Source: Tubulanus polymorphus
Lineage: Eukaryota > Nemertea > Palaeonemertea > Tubulaniformes > Tubulanidae
Direction: 5' to 3'
NCBI RefSeq assembly: GCF_964204645.1
Contig: NC_134026.1
Location: 7,130,001-7,194,000 of the forward strand
Length of the DNA: 64,000 nucleotides
Below, one piece after another: positions 19,001 through 61,900 of this stretch. Numbering within the stretch: position 1 is the first letter of the stretch; every line of letters begins with the position of its first letter. Under the pieces are notes generated by a model, which was given only the letters and a program-made list of their open reading frames with translations, was not told where the DNA came from and did not search any database. Both the position numbers and the translations under genes were made by a program.

Positions 19001-22000
19001 TTCACTCGGTGTATGGTATAGATTTTATCGAAAATTGATTCTGTAATGAGAAAAGTTGATTCGAATTTAATTGAACTGTTGAAGAAATTGAAGCGCGGTA
19101 ACCCAGTGCCACTAGCGATCCTGGCGGATTATCGTCGAATTCTCGCTTGCCACTGTAGCGTTGCCGGTCTCCTTATTTGAGTTATATATTACGCACGGAT
19201 ACATATCGAGTAATAGCTTCAAATATGAATACTTACACCATATGCCATCTATTGAAAGGTCCATCTGGCCAAAAAACGAAACATATAGTTCTCGAACTGC
19301 CGTCGCAGTAAACGTGCTTGATCGTCTTGGCATAAATCATTCTTGGTAAAGCGACGGCGATAGCGAACACCCAGATACCAACAATCACCGACCAGGCCGT
19401 GATTCCTCTCATTCGCGGCTTCAATACGTGAACTATCGCTACATATCTGTAAATACAATTATAACGAAATTGTGTTTTATTCTGATATTTCTCTCTGTCA
19501 AACCGGATTGCCGGACGTTCACTTCATCCCGAGATCTTGAAAAATGAATTTGGTCAGTTTACGCCGCGCATGTCGTTTCAAAAGAGCGGCCGATATCTGT
19601 TCGAGATTCCAAAAGCTTCAATTTAAGGGGTCTGGAGCGATCGGGAACGCGTCCACCGACTAAATGAGGCTCAGTATCTTTATTTAGACATTATTGGCCT
19701 ATAGGTCTAATCATAATTGACGTCCAATGTCGCTTGTACAATGTACGAAGTTATAAAACCCCATCGCGGAACCGGGCCCAGTAGATCATAGGAATACGGT
19801 CCCGGATTAAGGACCGGAATACGGTCCCGGATTAGGGACTTATCCTCAAGGGATATCCTAAGCCTGTACAATCAGGTGTAGAGAATAGAAGATGAGATTA
19901 AAACCCACTTGATAAAAATCTAGAAGATCGAAAACGAAATTTCGACATCAAGAATTCTAAACCAAAAATCAAAAGACAGCGTTTTGGATTCACACCTTAC
20001 GACGGTCTCCAGAGAAAGTTTGAAACGTCGAGTCTTCTTATGCTTTTTTGTTTTAATTTCAATTTTAGATGTCAAATTAACTACGATTCTAATTTTCATA
20101 AAGTAGGTTTCGATTAATAATTCCCTAAGTCCGAGTCAGTACGTGCGAGGAAATATTCTATACTAAGATGGTTCATCGTTTTCGTTTTACGTAATCCGAC
20201 CTGAAAAAAATGATGAATGCGTTTTTCATGTGACACAAGTCGTGATATAAATATTACAATTGCTGCCGCGTATGACTGATCTAGCGGTTCCGATGTAAAC
20301 AAATATACCGGATATTAAAATTTTACCATCGATCAGGCAAGCTCACTTTGAGCTAAAAAAAACTGTATAATATACTTATGACAAGTGAATGATTTTAGTT
20401 GGCGTAAACGTTGATGAAACAGTGGGGAAATATTGTATCGAGTTTCGTCTACCCATCGAGGGTTTTACTATTGTGTGAGAACTTGGAGTAATCATTTGAC
20501 TCCAAGGTGTGAAGCTTGTAGCTTGGAGTTTGTATAGTTTGTCCCGGCTGACCACGGGATCGGAAGTTCTAGAAGCTTTACAATTCAATTCAATAACATC
20601 TTTAATATGCCATAGCGTTATACATTTCATTATTGGACATATACAATCAAGATGAAACAACATTAAAATAGAACTTAAAAAAAACAGTTAATATCATATC
20701 CATTGTAAGGTTTTATTTATAATCAAGTGCTTCTATTAATAAACTTTCCTGGAATCTGAGCCGTTTTACTGAGGTCATAATGAACTTGATGAATTTCATT
20801 TCGTCACATGGAGACGCTGTGTACAGGGTCAAGATGCATAAGGTCTGCAGTATGAAAAGAACAGCTCGGGTCTACTGGTCAACTCTAGAATAGACATTCT
20901 TTTATGGCCAATTACACTGCAAATTACGAGAAGATTCGTATAGGAGCCGGGTTAAACTGGTGTAGATAGTACAACGAGACGAATCTGGTACTTTATAGGT
21001 TAACTAGTTTAATGGACACACGAGCTTACGCTACTATCCACAAGATGGAGCTACTATATACACTAGTAGCGTAAACTCGTGCGTCAAATAAACTAGTTAA
21101 CCTATAAAGTACTATTCATCCCGTTGCACGAGTTAGAATGTTCGGTTAACTCGTTGAAATGAACTGATTTTACTCAGAATTAGTTTATAATCAGAACACC
21201 GTGGAACTGACCCCAGGACCCAGATCCACAATGCGAGTGAAAATAAGTTCATATTTTCAATGAGTCAAATCTGAACTCACACACTGTGGAACTGAGAGTC
21301 TATGATATTACAGATTCTGGCCAGTCAGTTCAGATCGGTTAGGAATTTACCTCCGCAGTAGAGCGCACTTCGAGGAACTTGATTCACTGTAATATTTCCT
21401 TTCATTCGTAAAGTACAAATTCATCATATTCTGACAGTTAACATTTAAATTGAGAAAAAAATACGGGGACTGTTGTGGTAGATTTTCTCTTTCATGGTTT
21501 TAAAATTCAACACGCACATCGGCAAACTGCCAATTACAGTCGGTAAAAAGATTGATACTGAAACGATTTGCAAGTCAAAATGAATTGCGTGTTGAAGCAA
21601 AAACAGTCAGAGAGAAGGAGAGAGAGAGGGGGAGTCGTTTAAACAGTCAGACCGATTATGGTCTGTTCATCTACGTTTCAAAAAGATGTGTTTGTCGTGT
21701 AATTCAATAAGATTAAAACCCACTGTGTATGAAAGATAAAAAAGATTTGAAAAGTTTAATCATCAGGAAATAAGAATTTAAAGACACTCTGCCTCTGGTT
21801 CTGCCTCTGGTTCTGCCTCTGGTTCTGCCTCTGCTTCTGCCTCTGCCTCTCTCGCCACTTTCTCGATGAGTGAACTTTTAAATGATTTAAATTTTAGTCA
21901 TTTTTAATCTTATCATCTATTCTGCACATCGGTGTGTATACGGGGATTCTATTCTTCTATCTAATTGGATAATTCAAACTTATGGCGCAAACTCCTCTTT

Positions 22001-25000: not shown

Positions 25001-28000
25001 CAGGTTCTGATTGGTCTCCACCGATTCCGGATTCTATTCTCTTCTGGCGCGCTGTTTTGGCCGAATACGCCTTATACCTATTCCGCAATAGCATAATCAT
25101 GTAAACCTGATAGAAGCGACCGGTAGAGAGAATTGCAGGGTCCTGGGAATATTTCAAAATGCATCGCTTGCCATTTCTACGGATTCTTGTCGTTTACATT
25201 CTAAGGTTGCGCAAACAGGTTGTCCATTAATTCCACGCCCAGACCCCTCGCTCTAAAAAATGTCAGTTAAATCTGACGTTGGAGAAACGAAACCAATTCA
25301 TTTCGGTGAATGAAATTACGTATCTGTAATAATCATAAAACTAAAAGGTTGATTCTCCGAGGATGCACTGAGACAATAAGGCGAACGAAACTCCCGATGA
25401 TGATTCGGCGATACAGCAGTAAAATCAGCAAAATTGTGAATCTGAACAGAAACGCGCTGATTGACAATAAGACAATCAGTTTTACACGCGACGCGCTACA
25501 GTGTGACGACACCTCGAAGTATAATTGATACAATTAGGCAATTGACACAAGGGACTCTTAATATAAAAGCATAAACGGCACATATGTCGATATGAAACCA
25601 GCGGGTAAAACGTGATATTCATATATTCCAGATGAAAGGCAATATGTATGTGTATAATAACACGTGAGAGTCAGTCGGAGGTGCGGATCTATCAGGGGAT
25701 TTGAGATAACGAGGGCCTCAGAAACTGAACAGGGAGAATTAGTTCCCCTACCTACTGATGATGACGGTAGCAGGTGAAAGACGGCCGGCCGGCCGGTCGG
25801 CGATCGAAGATGAATTCCCAACTTCTAACGCCAATAATTAACAGAGTAATTGCGCAACACTTCGGGTCAATTTTCATGAAAAATGACTCCGCGAAAAAAA
25901 AGTATAACAAATCGACGAAGTCTGATACCACGCAATTTACAGAGAATATATATTGGATACTTATGTAAATGGGGAAAGTCGATTCGATGACGAGATGCAA
26001 GTCATTTGTAGTTAAAGGCAATTGTCTTATATATGAGGAGACAGTTCGAGCTTGTTTTATCTATACATCTCCGCTGTATACGCGCCAGAGAGTGTTGTAA
26101 TCACACATGTTAAATTTGATGTTTACCGATTACGAAACTGACGTTATTAAAGATGAAACGCGTGCAGTATGTTTCCGGGCTTAGATCAGATACTGTAGTA
26201 TGATTCGAAATGGGCTTTAGACCAAATACTGAAAATAATACACATTTTAATGTTGATTACTCTCTCAGGGGATACACAATATACGTGTAAGATGAATATA
26301 CGAATTCAGCGAAAGATGAAAAGTTCTTGAATAGAAGTCTATATGAATATATTTTGAGCAGCGTTTTTGCGATATATTTTGAGCAGCGGCTAAAGACTAT
26401 CAGGCATCATCAGGCGTTACGCTGATGATGGCTAATACTGGTTAGCCGAAACGTTGCTCAAATAAATACATACTTACATTTCTATTCAAGAACTTTACAT
26501 CTTTGGCTGATATATTAAGGGATTTCTCTGGTATAGATAATTCTCTTTTTAGATACAAAAGCCTACTACCAAAACCTACTATAACAATATGTAGTAAATC
26601 CCACATTTAGAAAGAGAAAAAACGAGTCCAAGGTTCCTTTCTTTAATATTTGATGTTTAATGGTTAGTGATTTATTTCCGTTCAGAAATAACCTAATAGT
26701 CATCTTCAGGAAAAGAGATGTTATATGTATAGAAATTGTAATAGAATTACAATCCAGATACAACTCAATAATGACTGTAAGAATTGAGTCGGAACTTCGA
26801 AAATGAATGATTAACTAAATAGGTAACATTTCGGACTCGTTCCTCTTCCTGAATGTGGGATCTCATATCATCGTTAATACAAGAGCTCAGGGGGTTTCAT
26901 CAATGGTTACGAAAACGTATTGTTACAGCCTGAATAATAATTGTCAAAGCCTATACTATCACGTATAGAATAGTATTGATATTCAGTACTGTCTCCATAA
27001 AACGTGTTGATAAAAAGAATCGAAGAAGCGAGGGCTCTATAAATTTGTACGTCTTAATTCAGTTGCACGGTTGTGAAGTAAATTATCGGTCTCTGGGGTT
27101 AAAATTAGAACATTTCATTGGTAATTATCTTCGCCTCTGGAGTGAACTAAAACCCACAACTGCAGAGCCGAGTGCAAATTCGAATATACCTAGTCATTGA
27201 ATGGGAAGTCGAACTAACCCCGAGGCGGTATAATCCGGGTAAAAGTAACAGAGTCCTGAGTAAAATTAGGTACTGATTTTGGAGGCATATCAAAGCCACA
27301 CAACTCAAACTCGTAGCTGTAGAATTTTGTTCAGAGTCAAATTAAACCCGCAGTGATTTGACTGGGTTTTGTCTTTGATGTGCTATGAGGATCTCTCGCG
27401 TGATGCGGTGGAAACCTCGTGGGATCTCGGGAACACGGATTATCTATGGTGGAGACTTCACGAAGAACCTTAGCATATCAGATGTACCATGAACCAATCG
27501 TAAAGTGGCGCGGATCACTGTGGGAACAACCGAATCCTGGACTGGGGGAAGTGGAGACTGGATCCTTACAGTAATTATCTGATATATGAAAAGAGATATG
27601 AAAAATCAGGTTCGGGGGTAGCGAACGAACCTCCTAAAATTTCGGTGTCAGCGTAAAAAAATTCAAGTCAAGTCAAGATTTTTCGAAAATTAGATATAAT
27701 TTTCATGTAATTTTTCTTTTTAAATGAAAAGTAACAATTCCGTAAAAGTGTTCAATTATTTGTAAATATGTTTTTGTTGATTATTAACAAGACGTTTAAG
27801 TTTGGGTTATCGAAAAAAAATCAAATTTAAGATCTCTCCTTTTTCAAGAGGAAAGTGCCCCTTTTCACAGTGAAAAGGTGCCCTTTTTCTTGAAATAGAA
27901 CTGCCCCCAAAAAAGCTCGGCACGGGCCTGCGATATACCACCCGCCCGTATCAATGGTTTAGGATTATATCGGTATAGAGAGGGTTAAAGTTATAAGATA

Positions 28001-41594: not shown

Positions 41595-41740
41595 TATTCC
41601 ACGTTTTCTTTGGAGTTCGTTTTATTTCAACGTTTCCACTATCCTAATGGTCATCTTCAGGAATACTGTATTCCTTGAGCTAGAAGTTTATTCTACGTTT
41701 CGACTTAATGCTAAAGGTCATCTTCGGGAATACAAATGTT
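41595..41740. repeat. Dispersed repeat H1 (inverted, two units)
   Basis: CAACGTTTCCACTATCCTAA then TGGTCATCTTCAGGAATAC, and again TACGTTTCGACTTAATGC then AAGGTCATCTTCGGGAATAC. These are the reverse complement of the H1 core in tandem. Confidence 0.6.
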
Positions 41741-49400: not shown

Positions 49401-50039
49401 GATCAGATAGTTCGATAATCGTTTCGATCCCGCTGCCCTCTCCCACTCTACCATCACTCTAACCCGCTCATCCTCTCACTCGCTTCATTACTGCACTAAA
49501 TCATCGACGAATTTTTGTAACACGTTCTTCTTCGGTGTTTATCGTAAAACGGGAAACTTCCCGAACCGACCGATCAAATCGATAAGACAAGAAGAAAACT
49601 ATTACTGCTTTTGCGAATTAAATTTACTTCCAATCGCGAACACCGAAGCGTGACTTTCGTGTTCGTTCGATCGCGCGTAAATCGCGTTTTTATTTCGCAG
49701 ACGTTTCGCACGAGAAAACAACAAGAATTTACTTATACCAGACGATACCCGATATCAGTCGAAACAACATGTACCAAACTTATTCCACTATTTCGGGACT
49801 TCGGAATTGTTTTTACTGTTGTCTTTTCATCTGCGGTGAGAAGAGTTGTTGAGGAGCCGTGTTGCTAACCAGCTGTTATTGTGAAAACGTGAAAACAGGT
49901 AGTACTGTGGAGGTTAACTGATTTTATTTGAAATCAAACGCTATCGTTACGAGAGCGTAGTAAAACTCTAGTCACTCTGCGCTGTAGTAGCGAAAACTCG
50001 TACTTTTGCTAAAATCAAGATTAACCCACGATGATATAG

Positions 50040-50230
50040 AGAGAATCCCACAATGATGACGAAAAACTAAGTCCGAAAATGTTTCCTAGAACTTATTCTA
50101 TTAGTCATCTTCGAGAATATCGGAAATATAGTCGAAACGTCGAATGAACCACTAGCTCTAGGAAACATTTTCGGACTTTGTTTTTCGTCATTATTGTGGG
50201 ATTCTCTCTATCGCCACAACACCGATATAG
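50040..50230. repeat. Dispersed repeat H1 (most complete copy)
   Basis: It begins and ends with inverted TGTGGGATTCTCTC/GAGAGAATCCCACA and ACGAAAAACTAAGTCCGAAA/TTTCGGACTTTGTTTTTCGT. The centre is ATAGTCGAAACGTCGAATGA. The ends define H1 as an inverted-repeat-terminated element of about 190 bp. Confidence 0.7.
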
Positions 50231-58900: not shown

Positions 58901-61900
58901 ACAGTTGAAATTACATTCTTCTCCATTACTTTATCTCCATCTCCATCCAATCTAGTCTAATTTTAACTGATAACTGTGGAACTTGATCCTGATAGGTACC
59001 GCAATAAATCTGCAGTTTTAATCATCAGTCTTTCATCTTTCCCCTGTTTAATTTAATGCAACTTTTGAAATTAGCAAGCGGTGTGGCCAAGTGGTTAGAA
59101 CTTTCGACTCTGGGAAGCCAGGTCGAAGGTTCGATCCTGGTACATTATTATCATTATTGTTATTATTACTGTGACACTTATCTTCATTGCCTCTCTTCGC
59201 CCAGGAGTAAATGGGTACCTGGCCTGATAGATGACTCCTGAGTGCTCAGTAGTTGCTCAGATGTTACTTCTCCCCAGGGAAAGATGACTGATAAATGGTT
59301 AGTTAATAGGCTGGGGGTAATAATACTGGAAAGTTAAGTGCTCTGAGCGGCTTCACTGGATTTTGCGCTATATGAGACACATCATTTTCATTATTATTAT
59401 TAGAATCATTCTAAAATGAATTGATTTAATTGACGGAATAAGTGCGTAACATCGAAATCTTTCTTTTATTCCGCTAGGAAAACGTTTATTGATAAAATGC
59501 AGCAAAGCGAACAAGATACAGTAGAATTACTGAAAACCAGAGATTGCAATATCGTGAATTTAGAACATTTACTCGCGAGTTCACAGGAAGAAATTGAACT
59601 TCTTCGATATCAAATACGGTAAGAAAGCTGATACAATTCTGAACGCGTTTCTACAGTTCGATTAGTTCAAACATCTGAAACGTACTGATTTAACCCCTCA
59701 GAATCAAACTGCGGAACTGAGTCCTGGATACGCGTCGCTTCAATTATATACTTAATATGTGTCTAAAACTATTGAAAATCTTTTACGTTGACATTTCGGA
59801 TAGAGTGCTGCTACTTTTATTCAGAGATTTATTTGAAATGAATTACAGTAATCATTACAAATGAATCCATGAAGAAGAGTTCTACCCAAAACATCAGTGT
59901 AACAGATTTTCATTGTTAAATCCTAAAATATTGTGGTCGGTTCTTCAGTATCCACTACCCGGTACATAGACTGTGACTTTTCTGAATTGATTTCGACGTC
60001 ATGTGATAATTAGGATGGAGCTCCCTCTATCATTAAAGTTGTTTCATATACGTGTACTATCAAACTCACTTAAGTCATCATTATGTTGACGACTTACACT
60101 TGATAGAAAATTGGAAATACGCTGAACGAAATTTCAGATGACTTCCGTAATTTGACGACTTCACTTAAGTTTCTTCAGTATTGTGTTGACAAACGAGTTT
60201 GATTGTATTTATGGGTATTTTTTAATCACATTATATGGTTGTAGATATATAAAATATAGGCTGGGACTGGCTTGTTATCACGCAGTCTGTCGATGGCATC
60301 GTAACCAATGCTTTCGAGTTGAGACCGAGTTTTTGATTTGATACAGATCAGGATTTCAATCTGATGACCTGTGAATCTGACTGGTTATCAATCTATACTT
60401 TAAATCGAAAATATTCGTAGAGTAGCCGTGTTAACCAGGTTTAAAAATAAGTAATGAGGCGAGTAGTACTGTATACCGATATGTTAACTATTTATTTGAC
60501 GCACGAGCTTTCGCTTCTAATGAATAGAAGCTTCATCAGGTGAATGAGGTGACTGACTCATTCACCTGATGAAGCTTCTATTCATTAGAAGCGAAAGCTC
60601 GTGCGTCAAATAAATAGTTAACCTATACAGTACTACTCGCCTCATTACTTATTTTAAATTGAAACTAATTCAAATTTATTCTGTAAATCATCATCTGTAA
60701 ATCCTGACTGAATTTTGTTGTGTGTTTCAGTCGAACGGAACAAGAATGTCGTAATCTAAACGAACAAATATCGATGTATCAGGAATCGTTGATAGCCAAA
60801 GACGAAGTGGTCATGTCCTTAACGAATCAACTGTTCGCTTTGGAAAACGAACACCAAAATAACGACGATCAAAACGCGACGAACAAACAAGTTTCAATGA
60901 AGAAAAACAACGCGGAAATATTAGAAACAGAGCTCGAAAAACTGCAGGTTCGTTTTCATGTTAACCCGTCACCTGACCTATCTTCCTTCAGTGGGACCTC
61001 GTTACAGCGAACTTCAAGGGACCAGAAAATATGTTCATTATAACCGATAGTTCGTTATATCTAGTATGAAATTAATCAAATTTTCTCACTTGGGACGAAA
61101 CTCAATATTTTTTATAGGGTATGAATTGTTGAATCCAATTTCCTTGTATCGAGGTTCAACTGTTTTTCTCTAAATGGTTTCACCAACGAATTGTTTCACT
61201 GCTTTTATTAGACAAAACATGACAACCTAAATTCAAATACTTATTTCGTGAAAACCGTAACAGATAGAAACTTGATCCTATGTTGGTTTTGATTTTAAAG
61301 AGGTTTATAATGGAAGAGCGGCAGATCGCGATCTATTTTCATAGTTCAAGTTGGGATTCAAGAGTTAAAAAGCATTGGAAAGGAACTAATTTAACAGAGA
61401 GTTTGGGACCTTGGTTCTGAATGTTCAACTGAAAAATACTTGAGAATTGAAAAAAGGCGAATAATATCTTATTTTGAAAAAGACTTATCTCATAATTTTC
61501 AATATAGTAGCGCTTATAACATTATATTACCTATATTGGTTGTCTAACAACCAATACAGACCCCTAAATATCTAAATGGCCAGAAGGTCTATATCGAGAA
61601 GTAGATTATGGTAAAATATCCGAATCTTAGGCAGTGAAATAATTGATTAATAGTTTATTACTGAACGTATCATTACGATATGTCAAATAGTTGGGTCTAA
61701 GTGAAGTGTATGTTTAATGATATTGTGTATTGTCAGGACGAGGTGCAGGCTTATGAGATTCAGAACAAGTTCTTGAATATTGAGATTATGGAATTGAACC
61801 AATTGAGAAGCGACAGTGAAACTAGAGAGTCGTATTTCGAGGGGTAAGAATCGAGTTTGCAACGAGCTGTGAATATACTTCGTACATTCGCCGTAAAAAT

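What the first reader, a model, noticed from the sequence alone, without database searches (positions are those of the whole stretch)
60410..60658. Foldback element whose arms each carry a near-complete hammerhead-ribozyme core
On the plus strand CTGATGA (60566-60572), a stem (GCTTCT/AGAAGC), GAAA (60593-60596) and GTC (60605-60607) occur in the order of a type I hammerhead. The second copy at 20935-21130 reads GTAAAC-TCGTGC-GTC, which would give the short stem III (A-U, C-G) known from ribozymes in Penelope-like retroelements. The element is a near-perfect palindrome, so both strands carry the core. Weak points: copy 2 has an extra G before the stem III C, copy 1 has a degraded CTGATGA, and stem I is not evident because the palindrome centre lies right beside CTGATGA.
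Basis: partly seen in the sequence, partly recalled or inferred. Interest (0 to 1): 0.68.

Follow-up and report, generated by a model that had tools for sequence, protein, structure and literature searches.

The report
Penelope leader foldback, broken hammerhead motif
The hairpin-shaped repeat is a short, dead insertion made by a Penelope-like jumping gene, which copied the first ~100-130 bases of its own RNA onto both strands of one break; the hammerhead-ribozyme letters in it are real but incomplete, so it is probably a ribozyme relic and not a working one.

Summary
In detail: at 60411-60652 there is a near-perfect foldback, and each arm carries CTGATGA, a 7-bp stem, GAAA and GTC in hammerhead order. 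That is more than chance gives. It is a repeat with many copies in a 268-Mb genome.

The arm is the 3' end, and by homology the 5' leader or "pseudo-LTR", of a Penelope-like element (PLE) that encodes a reverse transcriptase and a GIY-YIG endonuclease. In nearly all two-arm copies one arm carries a ~35-nt "tail" and the other does not. The pair is flanked by 8-17 bp target-site duplications, and the arms end inwardly ~30 nt below a TATA box. The centre join differs from copy to copy. Best reading: each copy is an independent PLE insertion in which both target strands primed cDNA synthesis from two start sites on the leader RNA.

The hammerhead is incomplete. No stem I pairs lie next to the core, 8 nt sit where PLE ribozymes have no helix III, Rfam is silent, and no arm ends at the predicted cut site. 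Other repeats in the same genome keep stem I and stem II. It is most likely a decayed PLE hammerhead.

The parts
60399..60410 (.). left target-site duplication TTTAAATCGAAA
   Evidence: pair found (12 bp, 1 mismatch)
60411..60548 (-). long arm: cDNA of the PLE leader including the tail (ref 170-300)
   Evidence: blastn of PLE 3' end from L065, 91% identity
60411..60446 (-). tail, the ~35-nt extension present on this arm only (ref 265-300)
   Evidence: outer ends cluster at ref 298-300 against 252-272
60549..60555 (.). centre GTGACTG, an untemplated or variable join, different in other copies
60556..60652 (+). short arm: cDNA of the PLE leader without the tail (ref 169-265)
   Evidence: 95% identity to PLE 3' end
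60653..60664 (.). right target-site duplication TTTAAATTGAAA
60566..60572 (+). CTGATGA, like hammerhead C3-A9
60573..60573 (+). extra A between A9 and stem II; invariant in 61 arms
60574..60592 (+). stem II-like hairpin GCTTCTA-TTCAT-TAGAAGC
60593..60607 (+). GAAA-GCTCGTGC-GTC: G12-A15.1, 8 nt in place of helix III, U16.1-C17
60498..60539 (-). the same hammerhead-like core on the opposite strand (other arm)
20934..21036 (-). copy 2, arm with tail (older subfamily)
21032..21125 (+). copy 2, arm without tail, with GTAAAC-TCGTGC-GTC

Best explanation
The foldback is a short insertion made by a Penelope-like retroelement. The element's RNA starts at ACTCATTC, about 30 nt below a TATA box. Its first ~100-130 nt are the leader that carries the hammerhead-like motif and, further on, two nearby sites where the PLE enzyme starts reverse transcription. 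At a staggered break in the target both strands act as primers. One starts at the far site, so it carries the tail. The other starts at the near site, so it does not. Both copies run to the 5' end of the RNA and are then joined, giving an inverted repeat with one tail and flanking target-site duplications. These short copies lack the TATA box and the gene, so they are dead ends. The hammerhead-like core in this leader has lost stem I and gained 8 nt at helix III, and is most likely a relic. Shown: the PLE link, tail asymmetry, duplications, end positions, TATA box, and missing stem I. Inferred: that the inner end is the RNA start, both-strand priming, and loss of ribozyme function.
For: PLE link: the arm is the 3' end of elements coding RVT_1 (E 1e-5) followed by GIY-YIG (E 2e-4), both slightly under Pfam's cut-offs. 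Outer ends cluster at two places, ref 298-300 and ref 252-272. In the set not selected by tail, 15 of 16 two-arm loci have exactly one tail (table plus reading of L041 and L055), where independent choice gives at most half. Target-site duplications (score >=8) occur in 52% of loci against 0.23% of mismatched flanks. Inner ends cluster at ref 169-171, 30 nt below TATAAATA in read-through copies. Centres differ between loci. The two arms of one locus share 39 non-consensus bases against 10 expected, so they come from one template. In vitro, the anole PLE protein cleaves and extends both strands, and its two start sites bound the tail (PMC11167929). Inverted pseudo-LTRs with an optional 31-bp tail and 8-10 bp duplications are described in rotifer PLEs (PMC3846280).
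Against: In vitro the anole enzyme showed no difference in start site between strands, so the strict one-tail rule needs an extra coupling step. One copy (L035) has two tails and mirrored flanks. The RNA start is inferred from DNA ends, not from RNA data.
Confidence: 0.72

Rival explanations
1. The second arm is made by self-priming: the first cDNA (or an antisense transcript) snaps back at its end and is copied, as proposed for rotifer Penelope elements.
For: Proposed in PMC3846280 from palindromic junctions. L035 has a palindrome that continues into the flanking DNA. Some centres are only 0-3 nt long.
Against: Snap-back should copy the tail too, yet almost every locus has exactly one tail. 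The tail-less ends coincide with a defined second start site. Target-site duplications flank the pair.
Confidence: 0.16
2. The foldback is a SINE-like unit: a hairpin RNA is transcribed from foldback copies and reinserted by the PLE enzyme.
For: Many copies, uniform overall plan, arms within a locus similar.
Against: Centre joins differ from locus to locus, single-arm and truncated-arm copies are common, and the copies lack the TATA box.
Confidence: 0.06
3. It is a functional hammerhead element (retrozyme-like), self-cleaving from either strand.
For: Core letters and stem II in the right order, more than chance. PLE leaders are known to carry minimal hammerheads (PMC6155905; PMC7761336), and one is protein-assisted (PMC11167929). 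An extra A is also known in the CChMVd plus-strand hammerhead (PMC3705267).
Against: No stem I next to the core, 8 nt inserted at helix III, core residues GAUGA tied up in a 5' hairpin, Rfam silent, own-genome model 6.4 bits, no arm ends at the cut site. In the foldback transcript both arms are locked in a -166 kcal/mol duplex.
Confidence: 0.05
4. It is a DNA transposon of the foldback or MITE kind.
For: Long inverted repeats flanked by duplications.
Against: The arm is the end of an RT/GIY-YIG element; duplications vary from 8 to 17 bp; arms are truncated on the inner side and asymmetric on the outer side.
Confidence: 0.01

Closest known systems
Inverted pseudo-LTRs of endonuclease-containing Penelope elements (Adineta vaga Pen2a and others, PMC3846280)
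   Same: Inverted leader repeats, one shorter by ~37 bp, an optional ~31-bp tail on one of them, 8-10 bp target-site duplications, short palindromes at the join
   Different: Here most copies consist of the two leader arms alone without the gene, and the inner ends lie 30 nt below a TATA box, where an RNA start is expected
Minimal type I hammerheads of Penelope-like elements (Cervera and de la Pena 2014, cited in PMC7761336 and PMC6155905; PAc in PMC11167929)
   Same: Place in the PLE leader, CUGANGA / stem II / GAAA / GUC order. Cut site lies 80 nt above the far RT start here; ~85-92 nt in PAc (from +26 and +111-118)
   Different: No stem I; 8 nt where these ribozymes have no helix III nucleotides; one extra A before stem II
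Metazoan retrozymes (PMC7229834)
   Same: Small non-coding repeats with a hammerhead association, thought to be spread by PLE-type enzymes
   Different: Not tandem, no complete hammerhead, palindromic, ends set by RT start sites and the presumed RNA start

Membership tests
Penelope-like element (derivative) | Sequence shared with the end of an element coding RT followed by GIY-YIG | tested here: met
   L065/L091, L073/L092, L053; RVT_1 E 1e-5 and GIY-YIG E 2e-4, both slightly under Pfam cut-offs
Penelope-like element (derivative) | Inverted pseudo-LTR arrangement with an optional 30-40 bp tail on one copy | tested here: met
Penelope-like element (derivative) | Target-site duplications of variable length | tested here: met
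   8-17 bp; 52% of loci against 0.23% of mismatched flanks
Hammerhead ribozyme (minimal PLE type I) | Catalytic core CUGANGA, GAAA, UH | tested here: met
   40 of 61 arms keep CTGATGA + GAAA + GTC exactly; one extra A before stem II
Hammerhead ribozyme (minimal PLE type I) | Stem II between CUGANGA and GAAA | tested here: met
   7 bp, pairing probability 0.97-0.98
Hammerhead ribozyme (minimal PLE type I) | Stem I closing the core | tested here: not met
   0 contiguous pairs in family A; 2-5 in the other hammerhead-like repeats of this genome
Hammerhead ribozyme (minimal PLE type I) | Covariance-model match | tested here: not met
   Rfam none at E<=10; own model R1 6.4 bits. Rfam also misses intact-looking PLE types here
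Hammerhead ribozyme (minimal PLE type I) | Covariation of stems | tested here: inconclusive
   One pair U-A to A-U in 5 sequences, many with the mismatched intermediate; 51 of 500 shuffles reach it
Hammerhead ribozyme (minimal PLE type I) | Self-cleavage | not testable with these tools
   Indirect: no arm ends at the cut site
Metazoan retrozyme | Tandem monomers each bounded by self-cleaving type I hammerheads | tested here: not met
   Copies are single or inverted, not head-to-tail; no complete hammerhead

The most novel reading that the evidence does not exclude
The leader RNA is a protein-assisted hammerhead of a new layout (no stem I in cis, with stem I supplied in trans or by a neighbouring leader copy), active only when the PLE protein is bound.
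Probability: 0.05. Interest if true: 0.65.

Novelty: new member of a known kind. Interest (0 to 1): 0.36.

Why it matters
How Penelope-like elements insert is still largely unsettled. This family offers a clean genomic read-out: many short copies in which the presumed RNA start, both reverse-transcription start sites, the join and the target-site duplication can all be read in about 250 bp. The rule of exactly one tail per pair fits both-strand priming, which the one in vitro study read here shows for one PLE protein, and adds a coupling between strand and start site that the in vitro work did not see. The decay of the hammerhead in a leader that has still spread widely would agree with the in vitro finding that ribozyme activity is not needed for insertion.

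Tried and rejected
Rfam gathering scan of the window (only 4 tRNAs). Rfam E<=10 on both copies: mostly microRNA-like hairpin matches, an effect of the long hairpin. RF00008 and RF00163 over the whole genome: nothing useful. The RF00008 search rang nowhere, not even in controls, and missed a real hammerhead found later by pattern, so it shows no absence. Test for arms ending at the hammerhead cut: two joins lie at GAC (ref 217-220), but microhomology with GACTCATT explains them and none is at A221. Stem I with read-through upstream sequence: a distant helix beyond a 10-nt by 6-nt internal loop, plausible by chance. RNAalifold on the arms gave a different, weak fold without covariation. Papers PMC4209133 and PMC5785218 on PLE hammerheads are not held. 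No named organism was established.

Full report
What is there. The foldback in the finding is real. Its arms are 97-99% complementary, and a transcript would fold at -166 kcal/mol, far beyond shuffles. A relaxed descriptor (core, adjacent stem, GAA, GTH) finds 5 sites in the window against 0.067 per dinucleotide shuffle.

It is a repeat family. The window lies in a 268-Mb genome with 77 contigs. A DNA search gave 89 matches from only 40 scored candidates. The exact word CTCGTGCGTCAAATAAA occurs 221 times. The outer word GGTTAACACGGCTACTCTACGAATAT occurs 137 times with up to 2 mismatches.

It belongs to a Penelope-like element. Three loci (L065, L073, L053) continue from the arm into a 3' UTR and then a coding region. 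The stretches fetched around two of them (L091, L092) read, in order, a reverse transcriptase (RVT_1, E 1e-5, 25.8 bits against a cut-off of 29.6) and a GIY-YIG domain (E 2e-4, 21.8 against 22.6). Both copies have broken frames. RT followed by GIY-YIG is the canonical order of these elements (PMC11167929).

Anatomy of the copies. I used 300 nt of L065 (3' UTR + arm + tail) as a ruler: ACTCATTCAC starts at ref 169, CTGATGA at 179, GTC is 218-220, the end of the tail is 300. I mapped 69 distinct loci. Outer ends fall mainly at two places: ref 298-300 and ref 252-272. Of 47 two-arm loci nearly all have one arm of each kind. Because some loci were fetched by similarity to the window copy or by the tail, I also counted only those fetched by the 17-mer. 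There 15 of 16 have exactly one tail, counting L041 and L055, whose tails carry small deletions. If the arms chose independently, at most half would be mixed; 15 or more of 16 would have probability about 3e-4.

Target-site duplications. Allowing the tail-less end to float by a few bases, 52% of loci have a duplication scoring 8 or more (8-17 bp) against 0.23% when left and right flanks are taken from different loci. For the window copy it is TTTAAATCGAAA / TTTAAATTGAAA (60399-60410, 60653-60664).

The inner ends. They pile up at ref 169-171 (54 of roughly 110 arms). In copies that run further up, a TATAAATA-like box lies 30 nt above ref 169. I read the inner end as the 5' end of the RNA. The centres of the foldbacks differ from locus to locus in length and sequence, so the foldbacks look independently made. 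The two arms of one locus are closer to each other than arms of different loci (6.1% against 8.9% divergence) and share 39 non-consensus bases where 10 are expected. They were therefore copied from one RNA, or from very similar RNAs.

How it most likely works. The anole PLE protein starts reverse transcription inside its RNA at two adjacent sites that bound the tail, and cleaves and extends both target strands (PMC11167929). Rotifer PLEs are bounded by inverted pseudo-LTRs, one shorter by ~37 bp, with an optional 31-bp tail and 8-10 bp duplications (PMC3846280). Put together: on a single-unit transcript the enzyme has only ~100-130 nt to copy before it reaches the 5' end. If both strands prime, one from each start site, and the two cDNAs are joined, the product is the foldback seen here. 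The steps shown here are the anatomy and the duplications. The steps inferred are the RNA start, both-strand priming and the joining. The strict one-tail rule is not predicted by the in vitro data, which showed no strand difference.

The hammerhead question. PLE leaders commonly carry minimal type I hammerheads without helix III (PMC6155905; PMC7761336). The same genome, and the same window, hold other hammerhead-like repeats. One is TATTC-CTGAAGA-T-GACTAT..ATAGTC-GAAACGTY-GAATA (family B; window 11182, 14465, 37870, 41617-41736; L090, L031). Another is ACAC-CTGACGA-T-GATCTC..GAGATC-GAAACGTC-GTGT (family D; L013 1057, L036 2701). All share the single extra nucleotide before stem II; an extra A is known from the CChMVd plus-strand hammerhead (PMC3705267). 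Families B and D have 4-5 pairs of stem I beside the core; the finding's family has none. Whether B and D are themselves PLE leaders was not tested by linking them to a coding region. Model R1, built from 11 family B copies, finds a family D copy at 28.6 bits but gives the finding's arm 6.4 bits, aligned in register over the core. The match in position and order argues for common descent. The missing stem I and the 8-nt insert argue that the motif has decayed. Rfam is silent on the arm, but also on family B, so this counts for little by itself; the search does work on a genuine hammerhead in this genome (43.5 bits).

Function of the motif. Stem II folds with probability ~0.98, but GAUGA of the core is mostly paired in a 5' hairpin with UCAUU. 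Core columns are hardly more conserved than others (0.963 against 0.945). Stem II shows one compensatory pair, reached by 51 of 500 shuffles. No arm ends at the cut site. I conclude: hammerhead-derived, probably inactive.

Limits. RNA data are not available here.

Noticed in passing
L093 92-156 and L094 90-154 (G000 C10:4956491-4956555 and 4964099-4964163): A genuine-looking type III hammerhead (43.5 bits, E 8e-8, just below Rfam's cut-off of 48.5) in two copies about 7.6 kb apart. The spacing could mean the two ends of a longer element.
   Followed up: partly
window 50020-50190: A second foldback of a different hammerhead-like family (family B), both arms ending in GGGATTCTCTC, so without the tail asymmetry of the finding's family.
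   Followed up: partly
window 41617-41736 (minus) and L090 2033-2222: Family B hammerhead-like units in head-to-tail tandem with a period of about 66 nt.
   Followed up: no
window 26422-26455, L095 123-172, L097: Family C hammerhead-like motif CTGATGA-N-GGCTAA..TTAGCC-GAAACGTY, three identical cores on C4 and a foldback copy in L097.
   Followed up: partly
L013 1057-1109 and 75-127, L036 2701-2742: Family D hammerhead-like motif with a 4-bp stem I (ACAC/GTGT) and stem II GATCTC/GAGATC, differing from family B on both sides of the stems.
   Followed up: partly
L008, right of 1735: The target-site duplication (TGTCCAATAACAAG) lies about 80 nt beyond the tail, after a second TACTCTACGAATAT; looks like a 3' transduction or a nested second insertion.
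   Followed up: no
L035: The only clear copy with two tails; the palindrome continues for about 24 bp into the flanking DNA, as if a snap-back had copied the flank.
   Followed up: partly
L076 1335-1526: One arm has lost nearly the whole hammerhead-like core (ref 181-217, from inside CTGATGA up to GTC), as if the RT had skipped the structured part.
   Followed up: no
window 49899-49931: A 33-nt fragment of the same PLE leader (88% identity), beside the family B foldback.
   Followed up: no
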